Source: Lacibacter sp. H375 (GTDB lineage: Bacteria > Bacteroidota > Bacteroidia > Chitinophagales > Chitinophagaceae). From it: DNA of 64,000 nt. The DNA lies in contig NZ_JBBKTT010000001.1 in the NCBI RefSeq assembly GCF_037892425.1, positions 2,976,001 through 3,040,000 of the forward strand, in the 5' to 3' direction. Position numbers and translations under genes: made by a program. Below the pieces are notes generated by a model, which was not told the origin of the DNA, did no database searches, and saw only the letters and a program-made list of their open reading frames with translations. This document shows, in pieces, positions 28,446 to 43,862 of this stretch. How positions within the stretch are numbered: position 1 is the stretch's first letter; each line of letters starts with the position of its first letter.

Positions 28446-31400
28446 GTGAAGCGACTGTCGAACATTTATAGTTACTCTTTTCTATTGCTTGCTTTTCTGC
28501 TGATAGCAGGAAACGCAGCAGCTCTTCCACCCATTACCCGTTTAGGTATTGAAAAGGGACTTTCGAATAATTCTGTACGTGTCGTGTACCAGGATAAAAA
28601 AGGATTTATTTGGTTGGGTACGTATGACGGGTTGAATCGGTACGACGGAAACGAGTTCAAAGTTTTTAGGAATAAACTGAACGATAGTACATCTCTTCCA
28701 CACAACTATATTTATTCAATACACGAGGATGCCGATAATAATTTATGGGTAGGGACCGGCCAGGGTGTGGTAAAGTACGATCATACATATTCAAACTTCT
28801 CCGCATTATACGGTTATCCTTACCAGGCAAAGCAACCTGTAAAAATAACCATCAATGCAACTTCAATTAGGTCGGGTAATGATGGCTCGTTGCTGGTTGC
28901 AACGAATGGTTGGGGATTGATGGTAAAGAAAAAGAACGATGAGTATGCAAGAGAAGTGCCACTGCTAATTGGTAATCAGAAACTCACTGGATATAATGTA
29001 AGAGATATTGTTATTGATAAAAACATTGCTTGGCTATTTATTTCAGGAAGAGGGTTGTGCCTGTATGATGCAAAACTTGGTAATGTAACATTAGTAAATG
29101 CAGATGTTAAACAAGCCAACTGTATGTTGCAAAACAAAGCGGGCCAAATATGGATCGGTGGAGAAAGCGGTTTGCATTTATATGATCCAGGTGCAAATAA
29201 ATATATCAAAACATATACTGCCGGGAACGGACAGCTGAGTGCACATGATGTAATTACCATTTGCTTCGATAAACAAGACCAGCTTTGGGTAGGTACTGAT
29301 GGTGGTGCCATCAGTATTCTCAATACCACAACAGATGTTTTCTCCTATATTAATTCGGGAGATGAAAAAGACCAGGTTTCAAGTGAAGCAGTTTATTCCA
29401 TTATTCGTGATAAGGAAAACCGTATGTGGATCGGCACCATTAAAGGAGGTTGCAACGTGTTTGATGAACAGAAAAATAATTTTGTTACGATAGCGAGTGA
29501 TCCGCACAAATCAAACACCCTTTCGATCAATTTTATTTATTCTTTTTTTGAAGATAAGGCGGGAGATATTTTTATTGGAACAGAAGGTGGAGGACTCAGC
29601 ATCTGGAATCGTTCAAGCAATACATTTAAAAATTATCGTCATCAGTCAACGAATCCGTCTTCTATCAGCCACAACATTGTTTCGAGTATTCTGCAGGATC
29701 ATACTGGAACATTGTGGATGGCAACCTATGGCGGCGGTATCAATCGTTTTAATAAAACAACGGGTAGCTTCGAACGTTTTCGTTGTATCAATGATATAAC
29801 AGGAGAAGAAAACCGTAATGCATGGTTGATGTACGAAGACAAAGCCAAAACACTTTGGGCAACAACTTTTATAAATGGCCCGTTGTACTTCTTCGATCGT
29901 ACTGCAAACCGTTTTGTTGTATTTGATCATGAGGTGAATGATCTTGTGTCAATATTAGAAGACAGTAAAGGGCAGATGTGGGGTGGCAACACTGTTTCGT
30001 TTATTCGTATCGACCGAAAAAATAAGCAACATAAATTTTATGACCTGGGCAAACCCGTTCGGGCAATTTTCGAAGACAGTAAAAAGAATTTATGGATCGG
30101 TCTTGAAGGTGGAGGCTTGGTTTTGTTTGATGTAGCGAAGGGGGCGATCAAAAAACGTTACTCTTCAGCTGATGGGTTATGTAACAATGCTGTATTAAAT
30201 ATTGAAGAAGATGCAAAAGGCTTTCTGTGGCTTAGTACGTTTAATGGTCTTTCAAAATTCGATCCGGCAACGGGCAGCTTTAAAAACTTTTACGAAAGTG
30301 ATGGGTTGCAGAGTAGCCAGTTTTCGTACAATGCTTCTTACAAGCTGCGTTCAGGCGAAATGCTTTTTGGTGGTATAAGCGGTTTCAATGTATTTGTCCC
30401 CGAAAAAATCAACAGCCGCACTTTTACACCTCCGCTGCAGATCACGAATATTCTTATCAATAATAAAACGGTTTCAGAAGTAACTAAATATATAAAAGAG
30501 AAAAACGCAGGTATCTCAGAATTACGAATACCATTTAAAGAAGCAGTTCTGTTGTTTGAGTTTACAGCATTGGAATATACTTCTCCCGAGAAAATTTCTT
30601 ACGCTTATTACATGGAAGGATGGGATAAAGGCTGGAACTATTCCGGGAACATCCGCAACATCAACTACAATAATATCAGCGAAGGGAATTACAAGCTGCA
30701 TATAAAAAATACAAATGCTAATGGCGATTGGAATACTGACGAAGCTGTGTTGGCTATCACTATTCTTCCACCTTGGTACAGAAGCATTCTTGCGTATTTC
30801 ATCTATGTGTTGCTCGCCGTGTCAATTGTTTATTTATCGTATCGCTACAGGATTCAGCAGACAGACCTCAAGTATAAAGTAAAACTCGCCCAGGTAAATG
30901 CAGAAAAAGAAAAGGAGGTGAATGAAAAGCGCCAATCTTTCTTTACAAATATTACGCACGAATTTCGAACGCCGTTAACACTTATCATCAACCCGTTAAA
31001 AGACCTGCTTAAGCGTGATGATAATAAAGAAGAGAAAGATGAACTGAACGCCGTGTATCGTAATGCCCGCCGTTTATTAAGTTTGGTCGATCAGTTGTTG
31101 TTATTCCGGAAAACAGAGAGTGAAACAGGGAAACTGCAAGTAACTGCTATCAACCTTTTTGATCTTACACACGATACTTTCCTTTATTTCAAACAACAGG
31201 CGAAAGCGAGGCAAATTGATTATACGTTTGAATGTGAGAACAAATCATTAGAGTTGTTTGCAGATAAAGCAAAACTGGAGATTGTGTTTTATAATCTTTT
31301 GTCGAATGCGTTTAAATACACACCTGATAAAGGCAAGATCGTTTTCAACATACAAGAAGAGAGCAATCTGGTCTTGATAAAAATTTCAGATAGTGGTCAG

Positions 31401-32543
31401 GGCATTCCTGCGCATGTTGGCAATAAGATATTCGATAAGTTTTACCAGGTAAGTGAAGACAATGTGCCTACAAAGCCGGGCTTTGGAATTGGCCTGTACC
31501 TGGTTAAGCAATTGGTAGAAGATCATCACGGTTCTATTCAATACAATAGTAAGGAAGGAGAGGGTACGAGTTTTATCGTTGAGTTGAAAAAAGGAAAAGA
31601 GCATTTTGGTAAAGTAACTATTCAGGAATTTGCTTCGTTACAGGAAAACCTGTTGCTTGAAGAGATCAGTGCAGGAATGGAACCGATGGTTGCTGCAAAG
31701 AAATTGGGTACTGATGGCTTAGAGTCGATTGTAAGTGAAAATCTATCGATACTGGTTACGGATGATAATGAACAGTTGCGTAGTTACCTGGTGCAGGTAT
31801 TTAAAGGTGCCTTTATAGTTTACGAAGCCAAAAGTGCAGAAGAAGGATTAAAAATGGCAAAGCAGATTTTACCGGATGTGATCATCAGTGATATGGTGAT
31901 GGGCGAAATGTCGGGCATCGATTTTTGTAAGATCGTAAAAGAAACCCCCTCGCTGAATCATATACCTTTTATATTAATAACAGGAAGCTTCTCGCCTGAA
32001 TCGAAATTGAAAGGGATTGAAGTGGGGGCGGATGATTATATTACCAAGCCTTTTGAAAAGGATATGCTCGTGGCCAGGGTGCAAAGCCTCATCAAAAAAC
32101 AGGAAAACCTCCAGAAATATTTTTATAACGAGATCACCCATCAGCAAAATACACTCAACATTTCAGGTGAGTACAAAGAATTCCTGGAAGCATGTATTGC
32201 CGCAGTTGAAAAAAATCTAGACCGTGATGAATTCAATATCCAAACCCTGGCTTCAGAAATGGGCATGAGCCATAGCAAGCTCTACAAGAAGATCAAAACC
32301 ATTTCGGGACAAAGTGCCAACGCATTTATCCGGTTTATCAGGTTACGGAAAGCAGCCGAGTTGTTCATTAACTCCGATTATAACGTGAACGAAACCGCAT
32401 TTTATGTGGGCATTAAAGACATCAAATACTTCCGTGAGCAGTTTGCCAAAACCTTCGGGATGAAGCCATCCGAGTACATTGAAAAGTACCGGAAGAACCT
32501 GGGAAAAAATTACAAACTCAACGAAAAAGTAAAAAAGGACTAG
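28446..32543 (+). CDS. Hybrid two-component system regulator (HTCS) of PUL 1/PUL 2
   Basis: A 1365-residue single-protein signalling system. Order: signal peptide (GTG start, MKRLSNIYS), two seven-bladed propellers built of repeats such as GFIWLGTYDGLNRYDG (25-690), a Y_Y_Y Ig-like domain (about 690-775), one membrane helix (about 780-803), HisKA with phospho-acceptor His in ITHEFRTPLTLI (about 838), HATPase with DSGQGIPAHVGNKIFDKF, a receiver with Asp in IISDMVMGEMSG (about 1148), and an AraC-type DNA-binding domain (about 1255-1350). The periplasmic sensor binds a glycan fragment and the AraC domain activates PUL genes. It lies between PUL 1 enzymes and the relic susC-susD start of PUL 2. 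The paired C-tract sites downstream (32631, 35757) are candidate targets. Confidence 0.96.
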   Translation: MKRLSNIYSYSFLLLAFLLIAGNAAALPPITRLGIEKGLSNNSVRVVYQDKKGFIWLGTYDGLNRYDGNEFKVFRNKLNDSTSLPHNYIYSIHEDADNNLWVGTGQGVVKYDHTYSNFSALYGYPYQAKQPVKITINATSIRSGNDGSLLVATNGWGLMVKKKNDEYAREVPLLIGNQKLTGYNVRDIVIDKNIAWLFISGRGLCLYDAKLGNVTLVNADVKQANCMLQNKAGQIWIGGESGLHLYDPGANKYIKTYTAGNGQLSAHDVITICFDKQDQLWVGTDGGAISILNTTTDVFSYINSGDEKDQVSSEAVYSIIRDKENRMWIGTIKGGCNVFDEQKNNFVTIASDPHKSNTLSINFIYSFFEDKAGDIFIGTEGGGLSIWNRSSNTFKNYRHQSTNPSSISHNIVSSILQDHTGTLWMATYGGGINRFNKTTGSFERFRCINDITGEENRNAWLMYEDKAKTLWATTFINGPLYFFDRTANRFVVFDHEVNDLVSILEDSKGQMWGGNTVSFIRIDRKNKQHKFYDLGKPVRAIFEDSKKNLWIGLEGGGLVLFDVAKGAIKKRYSSADGLCNNAVLNIEEDAKGFLWLSTFNGLSKFDPATGSFKNFYESDGLQSSQFSYNASYKLRSGEMLFGGISGFNVFVPEKINSRTFTPPLQITNILINNKTVSEVTKYIKEKNAGISELRIPFKEAVLLFEFTALEYTSPEKISYAYYMEGWDKGWNYSGNIRNINYNNISEGNYKLHIKNTNANGDWNTDEAVLAITILPPWYRSILAYFIYVLLAVSIVYLSYRYRIQQTDLKYKVKLAQVNAEKEKEVNEKRQSFFTNITHEFRTPLTLIINPLKDLLKRDDNKEEKDELNAVYRNARRLLSLVDQLLLFRKTESETGKLQVTAINLFDLTHDTFLYFKQQAKARQIDYTFECENKSLELFADKAKLEIVFYNLLSNAFKYTPDKGKIVFNIQEESNLVLIKISDSGQGIPAHVGNKIFDKFYQVSEDNVPTKPGFGIGLYLVKQLVEDHHGSIQYNSKEGEGTSFIVELKKGKEHFGKVTIQEFASLQENLLLEEISAGMEPMVAAKKLGTDGLESIVSENLSILVTDDNEQLRSYLVQVFKGAFIVYEAKSAEEGLKMAKQILPDVIISDMVMGEMSGIDFCKIVKETPSLNHIPFILITGSFSPESKLKGIEVGADDYITKPFEKDMLVARVQSLIKKQENLQKYFYNEITHQQNTLNISGEYKEFLEACIAAVEKNLDRDEFNIQTLASEMGMSHSKLYKKIKTISGQSANAFIRFIRLRKAAELFINSDYNVNETAFYVGIKDIKYFREQFAKTFGMKPSEYIEKYRKNLGKNYKLNEKVKKD

Positions 32544-32630
32544 TGTAACCTCACATCGTTCCCTGTTTAATTTTCTGACTGCCACACACTCATTTTCTTG
32601 CCATTACCCGTGCTTTTAGGTTTAATATCC

Positions 32631-32693
32631 GAATTTACCCCCTTTTTGTACCAAGAATCCCCCATTTACGCCCTCATAAAAAGATAATTTTAG
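32631..32693 (+). promoter_or_regulatory. Paired C-tract direct repeat with 21-nt spacing, relic susC operator
   Basis: GAATTTACCCCCTT (32631-32644) is followed by AATCCCCC. The two C-runs start at 32638 and 32659, exactly 21 bases apart. A promoter-like TAATTTTA lies at 32685. The same arrangement occurs upstream of the intact susC at 35892. A 21-base period puts both half-sites on the same face of the helix, as expected for an AraC-type HTCS domain. Upstream, 32544-32630 shows nothing else. Confidence 0.5.
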
Positions 32694-32738
32694 CTCAGAA
32701 TTTCTAAAAATTTCGATTGCTAATTAAATAACTGCTGT

Positions 32739-32845
32739 ATGAGATTGTTCAATGCTTTATTCCCGGGCCTTTTCAGGATAACACAAAAGCGATACTCTGT
32801 CGCTCTCCCAATCAACCCTCCGTTACTTTTTTATAAGCCCATATA
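32739..32845 (+). other. Start-like ORF beside the relic SusD, possible remnant of a susC start
   Basis: The ATG at 32739 is preceded by AACTGCTGT, as is the ATG of the intact susC at 35892 (AACTGCTGTCAT). The short reading frame continues only to 32921 and has no recognisable domain. Together with the operator-like site before it and the SusD tail after it, this may be what is left of the beginning of a susC after an internal deletion. The assignment rests on position and a nine-base match only. Confidence 0.3.
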
Positions 32846-33141
32846 CCCGTCGATTATGACAATGTTACCAAAACGGTCGACACAGGTGCCAATTAAAGCC
32901 GTACTGAATCGGCTTAGATGATCATCGTTGGCATAATCTCCGAAGCAGGAAGATTACGCTGGTAACGAGTAACAAATTTGATAACGTGATGAAAATTATA
33001 AAAAACTCAAATGCCACATATACTTACAAACGACGATCATCAATTCGTCGTCATAACTTCCGTCCCGAAATGTATTTGATTCCTTTGCCTGATGCAGGGA
33101 TCAATAAAATGCCGGCCATGTTACAAAACCCGGGTTGGTAA
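32846..33141 (+). pseudogene. Remnant of a SusD-like gene (C-terminus, frameshifted)
   Basis: From 32911 to the stop at 33139-33141 one open frame encodes LDDHRWHNLRS, then FDNVMKII, and finally HNFRPEMYLIPLPD and INKMPAMLQNPGW. These are the SusD EGHRWFDLR-like motif and the typical SusD C-terminus (IPxxEINxNPxLxQNPGW). Just upstream, in a second frame, QVPIKAVLN (32883-32909) matches the segment before ERRxELAFEGHRW, and in the third frame PVDYDNVTKTVDT (32846-32884) matches the block before that. No start codon and three frames: this is a decayed end of a susD whose remainder and partner susC are gone. The functional pair at 35892-40564 lies 2.8 kb downstream. Confidence 0.8.
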
Positions 33142-33162
33142 ACATTAAATAAATTTGCGTTT

Positions 33163-35568
33163 ATGTTGAGTAAAAACTGTGGTTTGATTTTATCGTTGCT
33201 TGTACTATTACAATGTTTAGCAACAGCACAAACATCTTTTAATACTGCTGTAACTGTTACTGAAGTTGGTAAAGGGTGGTCTGGTAATTCTGTTAACACA
33301 GTTGTATTTCGAAAAAACTCATTGGCATCTTACAAAAACGTACAGTTTACCAGCTACTACGATGCCGATGGTTTTGTAGTGCTTGGTAAACGAAACATTG
33401 GTGAAAATAACTGGATTTTAAAACGTACAGTTTACAAAGGCAATATTAAAGATGCACATAACAGCATCAGTATTGCAATTGATGGAGATGGTTACCTGCA
33501 TATTGCATGGGATCATCATGCCAATCCTTTACGTTATGCAAAAAGTAAAGAACCATTGTCACTGGAGTTGACAGAAAAGATGCCGATGATGAACAAAGAT
33601 GAACAGAAAGTAACGTATCCTGAATTCTATAAAATGCCCAATGGCAATCTCCTGTTCTTTTACAGAGATGGTGCTTCCGGTAATGGCAACATGGTATTGA
33701 ATAAATACGATGTACAACAAAAGCAATGGAGCCGTTTACAAACCAATTTAATTGATGGTGAAAACAAACGCAATGCATATTGGCAGGCATGTGTTGATGC
33801 AAAAGGTGCTATCCATATTTCATGGGTTTGGCGTGAGAGCCCTGATGTAGCAAGTAACCATGACATGAGCTATGCTGTATCAAAAGACGGCGGTGTTACA
33901 TGGCAAAGATCAAACGGCCAGAAATATGTACTGCCAATTACAATGGCAACTGCAGAAAAAGTATTGACCATACCACAGAAAAGTGAGTTGATCAATCAAA
34001 CATCAATGAGTACCGATACAAAGGGAAATCCGATAATAGCAGGTTACTGGAACGATGGAAATGGAATACCGCAGTATCATGTTATTTATAAAACAACGAA
34101 GAGTTGGGCAGTAAAAGATCTTGCGTTCCGCACAACTGATTTTAGTTTAAGTGGAGCAGGTACAAAGAAAATCCCCATCTCTCGCCCACAGGTCATTTGT
34201 ATCGAATCAGGCAAAATCAAAAGCGCTGCTGTTATTTTTCGTGATGAAGAGCGTGGCAATAAAGTATCTGTTGCCTATGGCGGGCTCAATAGCAAATCAA
34301 AATGGAAACTTGCGGATCTGTTACAAACAAATACGGGTTCATGGGAGCCAACTTATGATATAGAATTATGGAAGCAACAAAAGCAATTGCATCTGTTTGT
34401 GCAGGATGTGCAGCAGGGCGATGGCGAAGGGGTATTAAAAGTTGAACCTCAACCTGTGCGTGTAATAGAGTGGTTGCCGATAGCTACAAAAAAACAAGCT
34501 GAACAAATTGTGAAGAAGAATGAACTGTTGCAGGTTATTCAAACAGTAAATAATTACTGGCAAAAAACAAATCCTGTTCATGGCCGGGCCTTCTGGGATA
34601 ATGCAGCTTATCATACCGGTAATATGGAGGCGTATGCGCTCACAAAAAATGAAACGTATAAAGATTATTCCGAAGCATGGGCCATCAAAAATGAATGGAA
34701 AGGAGCGAAGAGTACAAACAAAGCTGAATGGAAATTCAATTATGGTGAGAATGATGATTATGTATTGTTTGGTGATTGGCAGATATGTTTTCAAACCTAT
34801 ATTGATCTCTACAACCTGCAACCTGAAGAATTAAAAATTGCCCGTGCGAAAGAAGTGATGAGCTACCAGGTAAGTACAGCAGAAAATAAATACTGGTGGT
34901 GGGCTGATGGTCTTTATATGGTGATGCCGGTAATGACGAAGATGTATAAACTCACCGGTGACAAAATTTATCTTGATAAACTCTACGAGTATTACACTTA
35001 TGCCAACAGCATTATGTACGATGCAGACGAAAAGATCTACTACCGTGATGCCAAGTATGTATATCCCAACCACAAAAGTGTAAATGGGAAAAAAGATTTC
35101 TGGGCAAGGGGGAACGGATGGGTGTTTGCCGGCCTGGCAAAAGTGTTGCAGGATCTGCCGAAGAATGATGCTCATTACAATGAGTATGTAGAAAAATTCA
35201 AAGGCATGGCTGCAGCATTGAAAAAGCAGCAACAGTCAGAAGGGTATTGGACAAGAAGTTTACTCGATACTGCACATGCACCCGGTTATGAAACAAGCGG
35301 CACAGCATTTTTTACCTATTCTTATTTGTGGGGAATGAACAACGGTTATTTGGATAAAGCAGAATACACACCAGTTGCAGTAAAAGGCTGGAACTACTTA
35401 AAAAATATCGCCATGCAGCCCAACGGGAAAATTGGTTATGTGCAGCCTATTGGTGAACGTGCAATTCCCGGGCAAGTGGTTGATAAAAACTCAACTTCCA
35501 ATTTCGGCGTAGGTGCTTTCTTATTGGCAGCCTGCGAAATGGTTCGTTTCGCTGAAGTAGGAAAATAA
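33163..35568 (+). CDS. Fusion of BNR_4 beta-propeller (GH145/lyase-like) and GH105 unsaturated uronyl hydrolase
   Basis: An 801-residue exported protein. Residues 24-430 are a BNR_4-type propeller with KDAHNSISIAIDGDGYLHIAWDHH and PLRYAKS. This fold occurs in GH145 L-rhamnosyl-glucuronate hydrolases and in PL25-type lyases. Residues 450-801 are a GH105/GH88 (alpha/alpha)6 barrel with YWWWADGLYMVMPVM (catalytic D582), FWARGNGWVFAGLAK and YETSGTAFFTYSY. GH105 enzymes hydrate and remove unsaturated uronic acids made by lyases. A single chain that first cleaves a rhamnose- or uronate-capped end and then removes the unsaturated uronic acid is a sensible reading, but whether the propeller is hydrolase or lyase cannot be decided by eye. 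A terminator follows. It starts 21 bases after the relic SusD stop. Confidence 0.85.
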   Translation: MLSKNCGLILSLLVLLQCLATAQTSFNTAVTVTEVGKGWSGNSVNTVVFRKNSLASYKNVQFTSYYDADGFVVLGKRNIGENNWILKRTVYKGNIKDAHNSISIAIDGDGYLHIAWDHHANPLRYAKSKEPLSLELTEKMPMMNKDEQKVTYPEFYKMPNGNLLFFYRDGASGNGNMVLNKYDVQQKQWSRLQTNLIDGENKRNAYWQACVDAKGAIHISWVWRESPDVASNHDMSYAVSKDGGVTWQRSNGQKYVLPITMATAEKVLTIPQKSELINQTSMSTDTKGNPIIAGYWNDGNGIPQYHVIYKTTKSWAVKDLAFRTTDFSLSGAGTKKIPISRPQVICIESGKIKSAAVIFRDEERGNKVSVAYGGLNSKSKWKLADLLQTNTGSWEPTYDIELWKQQKQLHLFVQDVQQGDGEGVLKVEPQPVRVIEWLPIATKKQAEQIVKKNELLQVIQTVNNYWQKTNPVHGRAFWDNAAYHTGNMEAYALTKNETYKDYSEAWAIKNEWKGAKSTNKAEWKFNYGENDDYVLFGDWQICFQTYIDLYNLQPEELKIARAKEVMSYQVSTAENKYWWWADGLYMVMPVMTKMYKLTGDKIYLDKLYEYYTYANSIMYDADEKIYYRDAKYVYPNHKSVNGKKDFWARGNGWVFAGLAKVLQDLPKNDAHYNEYVEKFKGMAAALKKQQQSEGYWTRSLLDTAHAPGYETSGTAFFTYSYLWGMNNGYLDKAEYTPVAVKGWNYLKNIAMQPNGKIGYVQPIGERAIPGQVVDKNSTSNFGVGAFLLAACEMVRFAEVGK

Positions 35569-35603
35569 TTAAAGGAGCAATGTTATATCAGCAGTTAATC
35601 AAT

Positions 35604-35632
35604 AACCGGCTGTTTCTACAGCCGGTTTCTTT
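35604..35632 (+). terminator. Rho-independent terminator after the propeller-GH105 gene
   Basis: AACCGGCTGT (35604-35613) pairs with ACAGCCGGTT (35618-35627) across a TTCT loop, with further T-rich sequence after it. It isolates the fusion gene from the susC promoter region. Confidence 0.8.
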
Positions 35633-35756
35633 CATGGCCGGCTGAATGAATTTGCTTTCATGCAAAAGTATCACACCGGGAAAATATAAGCCAAGAGTAA
35701 TACACTGGTTTGGCAAGTCAATTAATTTAAATCAGGGGAAAAAAGCTTGCAAATAT

Positions 35757-35834
35757 GAATTTGTCCCCTTCTTTCTATCATTTATCCCCCCCGTAAAGCT
35801 GCAAACAGCTCCCAAATTTGGGCGTTAATTTTTT
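35757..35834 (+). promoter_or_regulatory. susC upstream region: 21-nt spaced C-tract repeat and palindromes
   Basis: GAATTTGTCCCCTTCTT begins at 35757 and a second half-site ATTTATCCCC follows; the C-runs start at 35765 and 35786, exactly 21 bases apart, as in the relic site at 32638/32659. Just downstream are a short hairpin AGCTG-CAAA-CAGCT (35797-35810) and a perfect 12-bp palindrome CCCAAATTTGGG (35811-35822), then a T-rich stretch with a TAATTTTT. The susC start is 35892. The region likely holds the HTCS operator and promoter. The rest of the gap from 35633 has no gene. Confidence 0.5.
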
Positions 35835-35891
35835 AATAACAGAGAAACAGTGATTTCGCTGTTCCTTTTTAACCTTTAAAACTGCTGTCAT

Positions 35892-38800
35892 ATGACTAAA
35901 AAGTACTGCTGCTTTTTTCGGGCTGCCTCCCGTAAGAAAGATACAAGGCAAAACAGCCTCAGGCATTTCATTGCAATTCTTTTGTTCTTCACACTTCCTT
36001 TTTGTTTATCGGCTCAGGATAAAACTGTGAGCGGTGTTATCACTGATTCTGAAAGCAACGAACCGGTTGTTGGTGCAACTGTAACCGTAAAAGGCAGAAA
36101 TGCTTCTGTTATTACAGATGTGCTGGGGTCATTCAAACTAAAAGCCGAAACAGGCGAAGTACTCCAGGTGTCGTATGTCGGTTACAGCCCTGTTGAAATA
36201 ACCATTCAATCGCAGGACGAGTTAGTACAGGTAAAGCTTACTGCAACCAATAAACAACTGAATGAAGTTGTAGTGGTGGGTTATGGTACAAAGAAGCGAT
36301 CAGATGTAACAGGTTCGGTAGTGTCAGTTCCTAAATCCAGGCTGGAAAGATTGCCAGTGACAAACATACTCCATGCAATAGAAGGCTCTGTAGCAGGTGT
36401 GAATATCAGCCAGGGATCATCAGTTCCCGGTAGTTCAGCAGGTATATTGGTGCGTGGACAAAATTCCATTTCAGCCAACACAAGTCCTCTTATTGTTGTG
36501 GATGGAATTCCGTTTAACAAATCGGGTGGCATTACCAATGATATCAATCCAAACGATATTGCTTCAATTGAAGTATTGAAAGATGCTTCTGCTACGGCAA
36601 TCTATGGTATGAACGGTTCAAACGGTGTAATCCTCATCACAACAAAAAGAGGTACCACAGGAAAACCTGTTATTCGTTATAGTGGCTACACAGGGGTTGA
36701 TAATGTCGTACAAACACTTACTCCACTAAGCCCCGAGCAATATGTACAGAAGTATACCGATTATAAAACACAAGTGCCAACTGCACCACAAACAGTATTA
36801 TGGAATGCATATGAAATTGCAAACTACAATGCAGGTAAAACCGTTGACTGGTTAAACGAAGTGAAGCGGCAGGGTGTTATTCAGGATCATAACATAAGTA
36901 TTTCAGGTGGTACTAAGGAGTTCAAATATTTCCTTTCAGGTGAATATTTAAAACAGTTGGGTGCCGTAAAAGGATACCAGTATCACAGGGCAAGTGTTCG
37001 TTCAAATATGGACATCAATCTTACTGATTATTTATCTGTGGGTACATCGTTGTTTTATGCAAATAACAACTACGATGGTGGCAGGGCCAACTTTTATCTT
37101 GCAGCAGCAATGAGTCCTTATGGAACATTGCGCAATGCAGCAGGTAACTATGAAATTTTTCCAATGAATCCTGAATTGCTTTATGAAAACCCATTGCTGG
37201 GTTTAAATACAGACAGGGTTGACAGAAGCAATAACCTTAATGGCAATGCATATGCTGAATTAAAGTTCAATGGTGTATTAAAAGGATTGAAGTACAGGCT
37301 TAATGTGGGTACAAATTACATTACAACACGTGCCGGCTCATATAGAGGACGAAATGCAAACAATACCATTGGTAGTGCAAGTACATCAAGTTCTGAAACA
37401 AACAGCTGGGTAGTTGAAAACATTCTGACTTATGCCAAAAGCTTTGGTGCACATCACTTCGACTTTACCGGTTTGTATAGTGCACAGCAAAGAAGGTATT
37501 TCACTTCAAGCGCAGGTGCAAGCAATTTCATTAATGATGAATTGTCATTCTACAATCTTGGAGCGGGTGCAACTCAAACAGCAGGTTCTTATCAGGACAG
37601 GTACAATATTGCTTCGCAAATGGCAAGGATCAACTATTCATACAACAGTAAATACCTGTTAACAGTAACTGCCCGTCGTGATGGCTCATCAGTAATGGGT
37701 GCAAATACCAGCAAGTATGGTGTGTTCCCTTCTGTTGCTCTTGCATGGAATATCAGCAATGAAGATTTTATGGGTAAAGCAAAGTTTGTCAACAACCTGA
37801 AGCTACGTACATCTTATGGTCACACAGGTAACGAAGCAATTGGTGTGTATGGAACTGTTACAACAGATGCATCCGTTCGTTATCCGTTCTCAGGTGTGAG
37901 TACTATTGGTGTATTAGCAAGTAACCTTGGTAATGCAAACCTGCATTGGGAAACTTCGAAAACATTCAATATAGGTGTTGATTTTGCGGTTCTGAATAGC
38001 AGAATATCAGGTTCGGTAGATTTTTACAATACCAGGACAACGGATATCATTCTTCGTCGTAACCTTCCTATTATTACCGGTTACAGTAATATTTTCGATA
38101 ACCTCGGTATAACACAGAACAGGGGTGTTGATATTGTGATCAACTCTGATAATATCTCGACTAAAGATTTCAAATGGCAAACAACTGCAAACTTTGCCGC
38201 CAACAAAAATAAACTCATCGATCTCTATGGCGACAGGAAAGATGACTTGGGAAACAGGTGGTTCATTGGTAAGCCAATTGGAGTGATCTATGATTATAAG
38301 ATGGTAGGAGTATGGCAGGTTGGTGAAGATCCAACAGGTTGGGATGCCGGGGCCAAACCAGGCGACCTGAAGTTTGCTGATACCAACGGCGATAAAAAAG
38401 TGGATGGTAACGATCGCATTATTCTTGGACAAACTGCTCCTAAATGGACAGGTGGCCTGATCAACACATTCTCGTATAAAAATTTAAGTCTTACTGTTTT
38501 CATACAAACTGTTCAGGGTGCAATTAAAAACAACGTTACACTTACTTATGCAGATGAAGCAGGACGTATGAATATTCCTGTTGAAACAGGTTACTGGACC
38601 GCTGCGAACAAAAGCAACTCGAGACCTTCATTGGGTTATACCAATACAAAAGGCTATGGTTATGCTTCTGATAACAGTTTTACAAGGATCAAAGACGTAT
38701 CTCTCAGTTACACTTTCGGAAAAAATGTATTGGATAAGATCAAACTGGGAAGTTTAACTGCTTACGTAAGTGGCAGAAACCTGCACACGTTTACAAACTG

Positions 38801-38912
38801 GATTGGTTGGGATCCCGAACATAACTATTCGTTCAGAGGTTCGGGCGACTGGACAAACAACTATCCCATTACAAGACAATTTGTGTTTGGTTTAAATGTA
38901 ACACTCCGTTAA
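35892..38912 (+). CDS. SusC-type TonB-dependent receptor (PUL 2)
   Basis: A 1006-residue outer membrane receptor. It begins with an unusually long leader (about 50 residues; hydrophobic core LRHFIAILLFFTLPFCLSAQ), then a carboxypeptidase-regulatory-like domain (GVITDSESNEPVVGATVTVKG, 53-130), the NEVVVVGYGTKKR box, the plug with PLIVVDGIPFN and the SusC signature DIASIEVLKDASATAIYG (about 228), and a barrel ending FGLNVTLR. There is no STN domain. susD begins 23 bases after it and shares its terminator. By its neighbours (beta-galactosidase, GH16, GH43, GH51, GH127, GH154) the ligand is probably an arabinogalactan fragment. A plainer signal-peptide start at a later Met was not found, so the ATG at 35892 was kept. 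Confidence 0.96.
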   Translation: MTKKYCCFFRAASRKKDTRQNSLRHFIAILLFFTLPFCLSAQDKTVSGVITDSESNEPVVGATVTVKGRNASVITDVLGSFKLKAETGEVLQVSYVGYSPVEITIQSQDELVQVKLTATNKQLNEVVVVGYGTKKRSDVTGSVVSVPKSRLERLPVTNILHAIEGSVAGVNISQGSSVPGSSAGILVRGQNSISANTSPLIVVDGIPFNKSGGITNDINPNDIASIEVLKDASATAIYGMNGSNGVILITTKRGTTGKPVIRYSGYTGVDNVVQTLTPLSPEQYVQKYTDYKTQVPTAPQTVLWNAYEIANYNAGKTVDWLNEVKRQGVIQDHNISISGGTKEFKYFLSGEYLKQLGAVKGYQYHRASVRSNMDINLTDYLSVGTSLFYANNNYDGGRANFYLAAAMSPYGTLRNAAGNYEIFPMNPELLYENPLLGLNTDRVDRSNNLNGNAYAELKFNGVLKGLKYRLNVGTNYITTRAGSYRGRNANNTIGSASTSSSETNSWVVENILTYAKSFGAHHFDFTGLYSAQQRRYFTSSAGASNFINDELSFYNLGAGATQTAGSYQDRYNIASQMARINYSYNSKYLLTVTARRDGSSVMGANTSKYGVFPSVALAWNISNEDFMGKAKFVNNLKLRTSYGHTGNEAIGVYGTVTTDASVRYPFSGVSTIGVLASNLGNANLHWETSKTFNIGVDFAVLNSRISGSVDFYNTRTTDIILRRNLPIITGYSNIFDNLGITQNRGVDIVINSDNISTKDFKWQTTANFAANKNKLIDLYGDRKDDLGNRWFIGKPIGVIYDYKMVGVWQVGEDPTGWDAGAKPGDLKFADTNGDKKVDGNDRIILGQTAPKWTGGLINTFSYKNLSLTVFIQTVQGAIKNNVTLTYADEAGRMNIPVETGYWTAANKSNSRPSLGYTNTKGYGYASDNSFTRIKDVSLSYTFGKNVLDKIKLGSLTAYVSGRNLHTFTNWIGWDPEHNYSFRGSGDWTNNYPITRQFVFGLNVTLR

Positions 38913-38935: not shown

Positions 38936-40564
38936 ATGAAGAAAACAAACTTAATTATATCGTCTGTTATTGCGGGTTGTTTGCTGATGTTCAGCGCCTG
39001 CAAAAAAACATACCTCGATGAGGAAGTGTACTCAGCTTATTCACCGCAAACGCTGAATGATTCATTGGGTTTTGAGGCATCTATTATAGGAATGCACAAC
39101 CACTTGAGCACATTCTTCAGCTACAGCGATCCGCAAGGTTGGCCAAGTGTATGGCATGCAGGAACAGATATTGCATTGGTTCCTCCAACACAACGCCAGG
39201 GAATTGAAATTCCTTACTATGATTACACACAGCTTATTGCAACCGATGGTGCTGCTTCATTTACATGGGGCTGGGCATACCGCATGATCAATAATGCCAA
39301 TATTATAATCAAGACCATTGAAAGCGGAAACACAGGTGCTATGACGGCTGCAAATAAGAACAGCATCAATGGTGAAGCAAAATTCTTCAGAGCTTATGCT
39401 TATAATATTCTTGCAACTTGTTTTGGCAGAGTGCCATTGGTGAAAGATCCATTGACAGCTCCCAAAACAGATTTTGTTCGAGCACCACTTGATAGTGTTA
39501 ATACACTCATTATTGATGATCTTACGTTTGCTGCAGCAAATCTTCCCGAGCCAGGTGGCTTTGGCTCAAGAACAAATACAAACGGTAAACCTACTGCACG
39601 TGCCAATAAATACCAGGCCATGCAGTTGCTTGCTGAAGTTTACCTGCGTGCGGGCAAACCTGCTTTGGCTGAAGCACAGTGTGATGCTATCATCAACAGT
39701 GGCAAGTTTGCATTAACAACGGCACGTTATGGAATTAAAGCATCTCAAGCCGGTGATGCATTCAACGATATGTTCTGGTATGGTAACCAGCGTCGTTATC
39801 AAGGCAACAGGGAAGCTATTTGGGTAATGGAATTTGAACATCCTTCAACAGTAGTTGGCGGTATTACAAACAACCCACAACAACGCCGTAACTGGGGTGC
39901 GGCTTATTATCAGATTGCCGGTATGATCATTTGCGATTCATTAGGTGGTCGTGGTATTGCACGTATGCGTTTAACAAACTGGGTGGTGTATGATCTGTAT
40001 GAAACAAACGATATGCGTAACTCACAATATAACCTGCGCAGAAAATTCTATTACAACGATCCTACTAAAGCAAACTATGGTCAGCAGATACCTTATGTTG
40101 GTGCTGATACAGTATTTAAGATATGTCCGCATACAACAAAATGGTTTCAGTATGATCCGAATGATGTATTTGGTTTTGCAATGATCAAAGATTTTATGTT
40201 GATGCGTTTAGGCGAAACTTATTTGTTGAAAGCAGAAGCACAGTTTAAACAAGGAAATACAGGAGGTGCTGCAACAACTATCAACGTCATCAGGGCAAGA
40301 GCAAATGCAACACCGGTTACTGGTGGTCAAATCACAATGGATTTTATTCTGGATGAACGTGCAAGAGAATTGCTTGCAGAAGAAAACAGGAGAATGACCT
40401 TGATGCGTACCGGGACGTTGGTTGAAAGAACAACAAGATTAAATGTACAAACTATAAATCCTGTAGTAGGTCTTGCTGCAAAACATTTGCTGATGCCGAT
40501 ACCACAAACAGAGATCAATTTGAATAAAGATGCTATTCTGGAGCAAAATACAGGATACAATTAG
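38936..40564 (+). CDS. SusD-like outer membrane lipoprotein (PUL 2)
   Basis: A 542-residue surface glycan-binding lipoprotein. The signal ends in the lipobox FSAC with a cysteine at about residue 22. Typical SusD features are NGEAKFFRAYAYNILATCFGRVPLV (about 145), RANKYQAMQLLAEVYLRAGK, FMLMRLGETYLLKAEAQFKQG, then INVIRARA and DERARELLAEENRR. The C-terminus LLMPIPQTEINLNKDAIL is the same element preserved in the relic at 33050-33141. It pairs with the SusC immediately upstream. A terminator 22 bases after the stop ends the susC-susD unit before the beta-galactosidase gene. Confidence 0.96.
   Translation: MKKTNLIISSVIAGCLLMFSACKKTYLDEEVYSAYSPQTLNDSLGFEASIIGMHNHLSTFFSYSDPQGWPSVWHAGTDIALVPPTQRQGIEIPYYDYTQLIATDGAASFTWGWAYRMINNANIIIKTIESGNTGAMTAANKNSINGEAKFFRAYAYNILATCFGRVPLVKDPLTAPKTDFVRAPLDSVNTLIIDDLTFAAANLPEPGGFGSRTNTNGKPTARANKYQAMQLLAEVYLRAGKPALAEAQCDAIINSGKFALTTARYGIKASQAGDAFNDMFWYGNQRRYQGNREAIWVMEFEHPSTVVGGITNNPQQRRNWGAAYYQIAGMIICDSLGGRGIARMRLTNWVVYDLYETNDMRNSQYNLRRKFYYNDPTKANYGQQIPYVGADTVFKICPHTTKWFQYDPNDVFGFAMIKDFMLMRLGETYLLKAEAQFKQGNTGGAATTINVIRARANATPVTGGQITMDFILDERARELLAEENRRMTLMRTGTLVERTTRLNVQTINPVVGLAAKHLLMPIPQTEINLNKDAILEQNTGYN

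Positions 40565-40709: not shown

Positions 40710-43862
<3,153 letters not shown>

What the first reader, a model, noticed from the sequence alone, without database searches (positions are those of the whole stretch)
32846..33141. Relic of a deleted susC-susD pair ahead of PUL 2
Between the first HTCS gene and the propeller-GH105 gene, three reading frames carry consecutive SusD segments ending in INKMPAMLQNPGW and a stop. An ATG with the same AACTGCTGT leader as the intact susC lies 107 bases upstream at 32739, and an operator-like repeat precedes that. The scar seems to have lost nearly all of susC and most of susD while keeping the two ends, as expected from an internal deletion followed by decay. 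It implies that PUL 2, or an older PUL that owned the propeller-GH105 gene, once had another receptor here. This ORF-free gap would be unannotated by standard pipelines.
Basis: seen in the sequence. Interest (0 to 1): 0.75.

Follow-up and report, generated by a model that had tools for sequence, protein, structure and literature searches.

The report
Scar of a deleted sugar-receptor operon
A bacterium has lost four genes for taking up a sugar polymer, leaving a 400-base scar that still carries the old switch and now sits in front of an enzyme gene, while a different receptor pair lies close by.

Summary
Window 32739-32882 is the first 48 codons of a susC; ~32891-33141 is the last ~83 codons of a susD; they meet at 32883-32890. 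The ends come from different receptor pairs. In three congeneric genomes (Lacibacter; G001-G003) the same slot, between orthologous HTCS and propeller/GH105 genes, holds four intact genes: susC1-susD1-susC2-susD2. The window therefore lost about 9.2 kb, from inside susC1 to inside susD2; no close copy was found elsewhere in its genome. The susD2 remnant has a frameshift and a stop, and its branch shows mostly non-synonymous changes (14 of 23, against 103 of 358 in neighbouring genes; p 0.002). A ~21-bp direct-repeat operator (32634-32663) survives; its only other match in the window precedes the present susC (35760-35789). The present susC-susD pair is only distantly related to the lost ones. 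A relative (G006) carries that pair inside the old slot, so replacement probably happened twice. Best model: receptor exchange in an arabinogalactan-type PUL, with the scar leaving the old promoter ahead of propeller-GH105 (promoter function inferred). SusCD exchange is known; this is a well-preserved case.

The parts
28446..32543 (+). Hybrid two-component regulator (HTCS), intact; orthologue of the HTCS that precedes susC1 in G001-G003 and susCw in G006
   Evidence: Pfam Reg_prop, Y_Y_Y, HisKA, HATPase_c, Response_reg, HTH_18; 91% aa identity to G003, 78% to G001 and G002, 79% to the G006 fragment
32634..32663 (+). Direct-repeat operator, spacing about 21 bp (TTTACCCCC-N12-GAATCCCCC), kept upstream of the scar
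   Evidence: One of two matches in the window, 0 in 100 shuffles; aligned in all 7 Lacibacter promoters compared. HTCS binding itself is inferred
32739..32882 (+). susC1 remnant: start codon and first 48 codons, open
   Evidence: 78.5% DNA identity to G003 susC1 over 144 bases
32883..32890 (+). Deletion junction (about 9.2 kb removed relative to G003)
   Evidence: susC1 homology ends at 32882; susD2 homology starts about 32891
32891..33141 (+). susD2 remnant: last ~83 codons with one stop, one 1-base deletion after 32913, then 75 codons in frame to the original stop
   Evidence: 81.6% DNA identity to G003 susD2; PF07980 C-terminus 6.4e-9; relaxed constraint
33163..35568 (+). Propeller (BNR_4) - GH105 (Glyco_hydro_88) fusion gene, intact; its orthologues follow susD2 in G001-G003
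   Evidence: Pfam; 89% aa identity to G003
35604..35627 (+). Terminator-like hairpin after propeller-GH105; similar sequence read by eye in G003 (one stem change), G001 and G006
35760..35789 (+). Second match to the same operator pattern, ahead of the present susC
35892..38912 (+). susCw: present SusC, 24-29% aa identity to susC1/susC2
38936..40564 (+). susDw: present SusD; close orthologues in G005 (84%) and G006 (96% and 90% over two fragments), not in G001-G003
40719..43862 (+). GH2 gene, next gene after propeller/GH105 in G003, G001 and G006

Best explanation
The feature is the scar of an internal deletion of about 9.2 kb that removed a tandem double SusCD receptor module (susC1-susD1-susC2-susD2) from an HTCS-controlled PUL. 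It left the upstream region, the first 48 codons of susC1 and the last ~83 codons of susD2. The coding remnants are now pseudogene sequence. The uptake function appears to have passed to another receptor pair (susCw-susDw) that sits 2.7 kb downstream behind an operator of the same type, so the resident HTCS could drive it without rewiring. The deletion left the old operator about 0.5 kb ahead of propeller-GH105, which is followed by a terminator-like hairpin, so that enzyme probably stays under HTCS control as a one-gene operon. Shown: the deletion, its ends, the gene loss, the decay, the operator sequence before both receptors, and the different placing of susCw-susDw in G006. Inferred: HTCS binding, transcription from the scar, the order and direction of gain and loss of susCw-susDw, and the substrate (arabinogalactan-like).
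For: Split DNA match of the 619-base query to G003, 9.2 kb apart. Intact C1-D1-C2-D2 between orthologous HTCS and propeller/GH105 in G001, G002 and G003. No close copy elsewhere: the best own-genome hits by E-value are 35% identical for SusD2 (the 77%-identical remnant itself aside) and 32% for SusC1. PF07980 match of the remnant. Window-branch changes in the remnant are 9 syn/14 nonsyn over 75 codons, against 255/103 pooled over HTCS, propeller and GH105 halves; Fisher p 0.002. The operator pattern lies before both scar and susCw and nowhere else in the window. G006 has HTCS-susCw-susDw on one contig and susDw-propeller-GH105-GH2 on another. The rpoB tree pairs the window with G003 (100/99) and puts G006 with G002 and G001 (93/95), which suggests two separate losses of C1-D2.
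Against: Against the deletion itself: nothing found. Against the wider model: the operator pattern was written from these same promoters, so its specificity is partly circular; my genome-wide test of it failed because I wrote the pattern wrongly, and none of the 12 stretches from other genera match the fixed pattern, only a looser form does (7 of 11 upstreams). The operator in the scar could be leftover rather than selected. The two receptor kinds are not mutually exclusive in the family: 14 of the 34 genomes with a SusDw relative also have a SusD2 relative at my cut-offs. Only 23 changes could be polarised in the remnant, and the contrast with the G003 branch (6 syn/1 nonsyn) is not significant (p 0.08). 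The species tree rests on rpoB alone, the G006 forks have 89-93% bootstrap and the deeper forks are unresolved. G006 is fragmented, with a contig gap inside susDw.
Confidence: 0.9

Rival explanations
1. Same deletion, but the scar is wholly inert: propeller-GH105 is transcribed from another start or not at all, and the operator is only leftover sequence.
For: No expression data; the susD2 remnant decays; the scar as a whole (upstream, susC1 and susD2 parts) is only 76-82% identical to G003, below the 84-87% of the neighbouring genes.
Against: Propeller-GH105 is intact and 89% identical to G003, with 94 syn/50 nonsyn changes summed over both halves on the window branch; the operator core TTTACCCCCTTTTTGTACCA is unchanged relative to G003 and its spacing is that of G001/G002.
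Confidence: 0.35
2. The relatives gained the four genes by insertion; the short form in the window is ancestral.
For: The window form is shorter.
Against: The short form holds a susC start and a susD end that match the outer ends of two different genes in the right order, with a stop and frameshift; insertion would not be expected to produce this. The window is sister to G003, and G001/G002 also have the block.
Confidence: 0.01
3. The fragment is a functional small gene or fused SusC-SusD peptide.
For: 77 open codons, 77% aa identity to SusD2.
Against: Frame differs from the susC1 start, with a stop and a 1-base deletion between them; non-synonymous changes outnumber synonymous ones on its branch; a SusD C-terminus without signal peptide has no role known to me (general knowledge).
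Confidence: 0.02
4. Assembly or sequencing artefact.
For: Tandem paralogous pairs can be collapsed by assemblers (general knowledge).
Against: susC1 and susD2 are different gene families, so collapse should not join them; the remnant carries its own substitutions and an indel; the contig is 4.8 Mb in a 3-contig genome listed as 100% complete.
Confidence: 0.01

Closest known systems
SusC/SusD exchange in the fructan PUL of Bacteroides thetaiotaomicron (Joglekar et al. 2018, PMC5967196; abstract and passages seen)
   Same: [quoted passage not shown] transfer of the pair gave inulin use
   Different: There the two strains have alternative pairs in the fructan PUL. Here a double pair was deleted leaving both outer ends, and the other pair sits in another slot in the window but in the old slot in G006
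HTCS direct-repeat operators of B. thetaiotaomicron (Ravcheev et al. 2013, PMC3878776; passages seen)
   Same: Direct repeat of two sites, average distance 21 bp, upstream of PUL operons
   Different: Here C-rich (TTTACCCCC) and in Chitinophagaceae (family recalled from the genus name); binding not tested
PULs with tandem susCD pairs (recalled)
   Same: Two susCD pairs in one operon
   Different: Here both pairs were lost, most simply in one event

Membership tests
SusD/RagB pseudogene (PF07980) | Profile match to the SusD_RagB domain | tested here: met
   6.4e-9, profile positions 225-297 of 297 only
SusD/RagB pseudogene (PF07980) | Loss of an intact reading frame present in relatives | tested here: met
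   590-codon susD2 in G001-G003; here ~83 codons with stop and frameshift
SusD/RagB pseudogene (PF07980) | Relaxed selection | tested here: met
   14 nonsyn of 23 against 103 of 358, p 0.002; against the G003 branch 1 of 7, p 0.08
SusC (TonB-dependent transporter) pseudogene | Match to the SusC start of orthologues | tested here: met
   144 bases, 78.5% identity to G003 susC1; not scanned with Pfam
HTCS operator | Direct repeat with ~21-bp spacing upstream of PUL genes | tested here: met
HTCS operator | Bound by the HTCS | not testable with these tools
   needs a DNA-binding assay
PUL receptor exchange | Backbone genes orthologous while the SusCD pair is not | tested here: met
   HTCS 91%, propeller-GH105 89% to G003; susCw/susDw 24-29% to the lost genes where they align
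PUL receptor exchange | Changed glycan specificity | not testable with these tools
   needs binding or growth assays

The most novel reading that the evidence does not exclude
Two distantly related receptor modules (susC1-D1-C2-D2 and susCw-susDw) act as interchangeable plug-ins of one enzyme set because both carry the same 21-bp-repeat operator. The swap happened independently in two Lacibacter lineages, and in the window the deletion at the same time turned the old receptor promoter into the private promoter of the propeller-GH105 enzyme.
Probability: 0.4. Interest if true: 0.55.

Novelty: new member of a known kind. Interest (0 to 1): 0.42.

Why it matters
Receptor exchange in PULs is usually inferred from comparing intact loci. 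Here the step is caught in the DNA: old receptor genes removed, both ends still readable, regulator and operator kept, another receptor next door, and a relative with that receptor in the old place. It gives a concrete, testable example of how a shared operator may let unlike receptors be swapped without rewiring regulation, and shows that short gaps in PULs can hold readable scars.

Tried and rejected
RNA family scan of 32400-33300: one match, far below its gathering score; no RNA element claimed. Sigma-70-type promoter scan of 32500-36000 found 5 sites against 10.3 expected in shuffles; not informative. A 10-base repeat TCATGGCCGG at 35632 and 40581, on either side of susCw-susDw, looked like an insertion mark, but a third copy lies at 34578 inside the GH105 gene, so I make no claim from it. 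No shared word of 6 to 12 bases was found between the two 70-base breakpoint regions of G003, so no mechanism for the deletion is proposed. A first set of trees mixed strands and was discarded; one search repeats it with strands corrected. My first count of changes in the susD2 remnant (9 syn/16 nonsyn over 77 codons, p 0.0005 and, against G003, 0.033) included two codons on the wrong side of the 1-base deletion; one search drops them (9/14 over 75 codons, p 0.002 and 0.08) and its figures are used here. Rejected: insertion in relatives, functional small gene, assembly artefact (see rivals).

Full report
Where it is. The window is G000 C1:2976001-3040000, a 5.08-Mb genome in 3 contigs. Its genus is taken as Lacibacter, because contig C11 of the congeneric G002 has the length of, and a match at the same place as, a contig of Lacibacter luteus TTM-7. 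Gene order around the finding: HTCS 28446-32543, gap, propeller(BNR_4)-GH105 33163-35568, susCw 35892-38912, susDw 38936-40564, then GH2, GH16, GH43, GH127, an arabinofuranosidase (ASD1_dom, Alpha-L-AF_C), a DUF2264 protein, and a second HTCS on the other strand.

The observation. Translation of the gap shows the C-terminal SusD text ending in INKMPAMLQNPGW and a stop. The open 77-codon piece 32908-33138 hits PF07980 at 6.4e-9 over profile positions 225-297 of 297. Of the 14 genomes of the genus searched with the 619-base gap, 5 had a match, the window's own genome included. In G003 the match is split: gap positions 52-339 and 348-605 lie 9.2 kb apart on one strand (E 2.8e-65 and 2.2e-64). G001 and G002 also show two matches 9-10 kb apart, but their left match covers only gap positions 50-210, that is the upstream region and the first susC1 codons. 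G004 has a 33-base match only.

What was there. In G003, G002 and G001 the interval between the orthologous HTCS and propeller/GH105 (one fused gene in G003, two genes in G001 and G002) holds four intact genes: susC1 (962-969 aa), susD1 (586-587), susC2 (1041-1042) and susD2 (590). The left scar piece is susC1 from its ATG (32739) to codon 48 (32882); the right piece is the last ~83 codons of susD2. No sign that the block moved elsewhere: the best own-genome hits by E-value to G003 SusD2 and SusC1 are 35% and 32% identical, apart from the remnant itself at 77% over its 77 codons (SusD1 and SusC2 were not searched separately).

Decay. Between the junction and the last frame lie one stop and one single-base deletion, after 32913. 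On the 75 codons behind that deletion, changes polarised with G001/G002 are 9 synonymous and 14 non-synonymous on the window branch, and 6 and 1 on the G003 branch; 10 sites were unresolved and left out. Window-branch controls are HTCS 161/53, propeller half 53/30 and GH105 half 41/20, with 183, 70 and 44 sites left out as unresolved. Fisher p is 0.002 against the pooled controls and 0.08 against the G003 branch. An earlier count with two misplaced codons gave stronger values and is withdrawn (see Tried and rejected). The susC1 remnant differs from G003 by 10 synonymous and 21 non-synonymous changes, not polarised.

The other receptor. susCw and susDw are 24-29% identical to the lost genes where they align; susDw did not align to susD1 at E 1e-5. 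In the genus (14 genomes), SusDw has close orthologues only in G005 (84%) and G006 (96% and 90% over two fragments), while SusD2 has close orthologues only in G001-G003 (88% or more); the next hits in both lists are far weaker. In G006 one contig reads HTCS (79% to the window's) - susCw - start of susDw, and another end of susDw - propeller - GH105 - GH2. If these contigs are neighbours, as the split susDw suggests, susCw-susDw occupies the slot where G001-G003 have C1-D2. In G005 a 45%-identical HTCS precedes susCw-susDw, directly followed by relatives of the window's GH2 and GH16 genes, without propeller-GH105. The rpoB tree pairs the window with G003 (100/99) and places G006 with G002 (89/92) in a clade with G001 (93/95); deeper forks are unresolved. 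The GH2 tree also pairs G006 with G002 (100/100). The window's loss is later than its split from G003. If G006 belongs with G001 and G002, its lack of C1-D2 is a second loss and the two placings of susCw-susDw are two gains. susCw and susDw are also more alike between window and G006 (81.6%, 86.5% DNA) than are HTCS (74.4%) and GH2 (76.2%), though the GH105 half is at 80.5%; this fits lateral entry but gene-specific rates could also give it. Against a one-or-the-other rule: in 294 family genomes drawn evenly from a larger group, 46 hold a SusD2 relative (E up to 1e-110) and 34 a SusDw relative (E up to 1e-80), and 14 hold both (overlap counted by hand from the two lists). In the 12 stretches that I fetched from other genera, C1-D1-C2-D2 stand together in 4 of 4 SusD2 stretches (susC1 cut by the end of one), and susCw stands beside susDw in 8 of 8 SusDw stretches; in G017 the two modules lie in separate places.

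The operator. All 7 Lacibacter promoters compared (4 susC1 type including the scar, 3 susCw type) share TTTACCCCC or TTTGTCCCC followed at about 21 bp (22 in G003) by a second C-run. A loose form of this (spacing 20-22) is present in 7 of 11 upstream stretches from other genera: 5 of 8 susCw and 2 of 3 susC1. Dinucleotide shuffles of the same stretches would give 0.06 of 11, and 5 of 600 random stretches of these loci have it. The 4 misses are G138, G263 and G017 susCw and G183 susC1; for some the true start may lie outside the bases read. The fixed pattern occurs twice in the 64-kb window, at the scar and before susCw, and in none of 100 shuffles. A slightly looser fixed pattern occurs in 17 of 156 fetched loci; by their coordinates these are copies of the 7 Lacibacter sites, and the 12 other-genus stretches do not match it. 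The patterns were written from these sites, so this is a consistency check, not independent proof. HTCS motifs in B. thetaiotaomicron are direct repeats with an average distance of 21 bp (Ravcheev 2013, PMC3878776, passages seen). In G006 the susCw upstream is susC1-like up to TTTACCCCCTTAT (46 bases at 87% to G002) and ends like a susCw upstream, which suggests that the operator itself was the join.

How it probably works now. The scar keeps operator, leader and start of the old operon; propeller-GH105 starts 21 bases after the susD2 stop and is followed by a terminator-like hairpin. I infer a one-gene HTCS-controlled unit. By sequence the propeller half matches solved chains 4irt, 5muk, 5mum and 5mvh (E about 2e-145 or better; names uncharacterized protein, Neuraminidase, BACINT_00347, BACCELL_00856) and L-rhamnose-alpha-1,4-D-glucuronate lyases (7esk and others, 3e-32 and weaker), and weakly ulvan lyases (7e-9 and weaker). 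That the first group belongs to GH145 is recalled. With GH105, GH2, GH16 and GH43 this points to rhamnose-glucuronate caps of arabinogalactan; the substrate is inferred.

Known or new. SusCD exchange behind a conserved promoter is known (Joglekar 2018, PMC5967196, abstract and passages seen). Searches for Lacibacter with polysaccharide utilization (2 papers) and for SusCD, gene loss, recombination and arabinogalactan (3 papers at 4 of 5 terms) listed none whose title or abstract start concerns this case; only listings were seen, and most subscription papers are not held. I file it as a new member of a known kind.

Noticed in passing
window 34578, 35632, 40581: The 10-base word TCATGGCCGG occurs three times on the + strand; two copies flank susCw-susDw and one of these is where identity to G003 stops, but the third lies inside GH105, so it may be chance.
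   Followed up: yes
window 40719-43862: The GH2 gene is 77.5% identical to G003 while HTCS, propeller-GH105, GH16 and GH43 genes are 84-90%; its tree pairs the window with G001 (97/99), unlike rpoB, so it may have been exchanged, perhaps with the receptor pair.
   Followed up: partly
G006:C191 upstream of susCw (L093): Upstream region looks chimeric: susC1-type left half, susCw-type right half, joined inside the operator.
   Followed up: partly
window 33163-35568 versus L040, L041, L094: Propeller and GH105 are one gene in the window and G003 but two separate genes in G001, G002 and G006.
   Followed up: no
L153-L156: susC1-D1-C2-D2 stands as a four-gene unit in genomes of other genera (G099, G263, G183, G017), suggesting two receptors that work together.
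   Followed up: no
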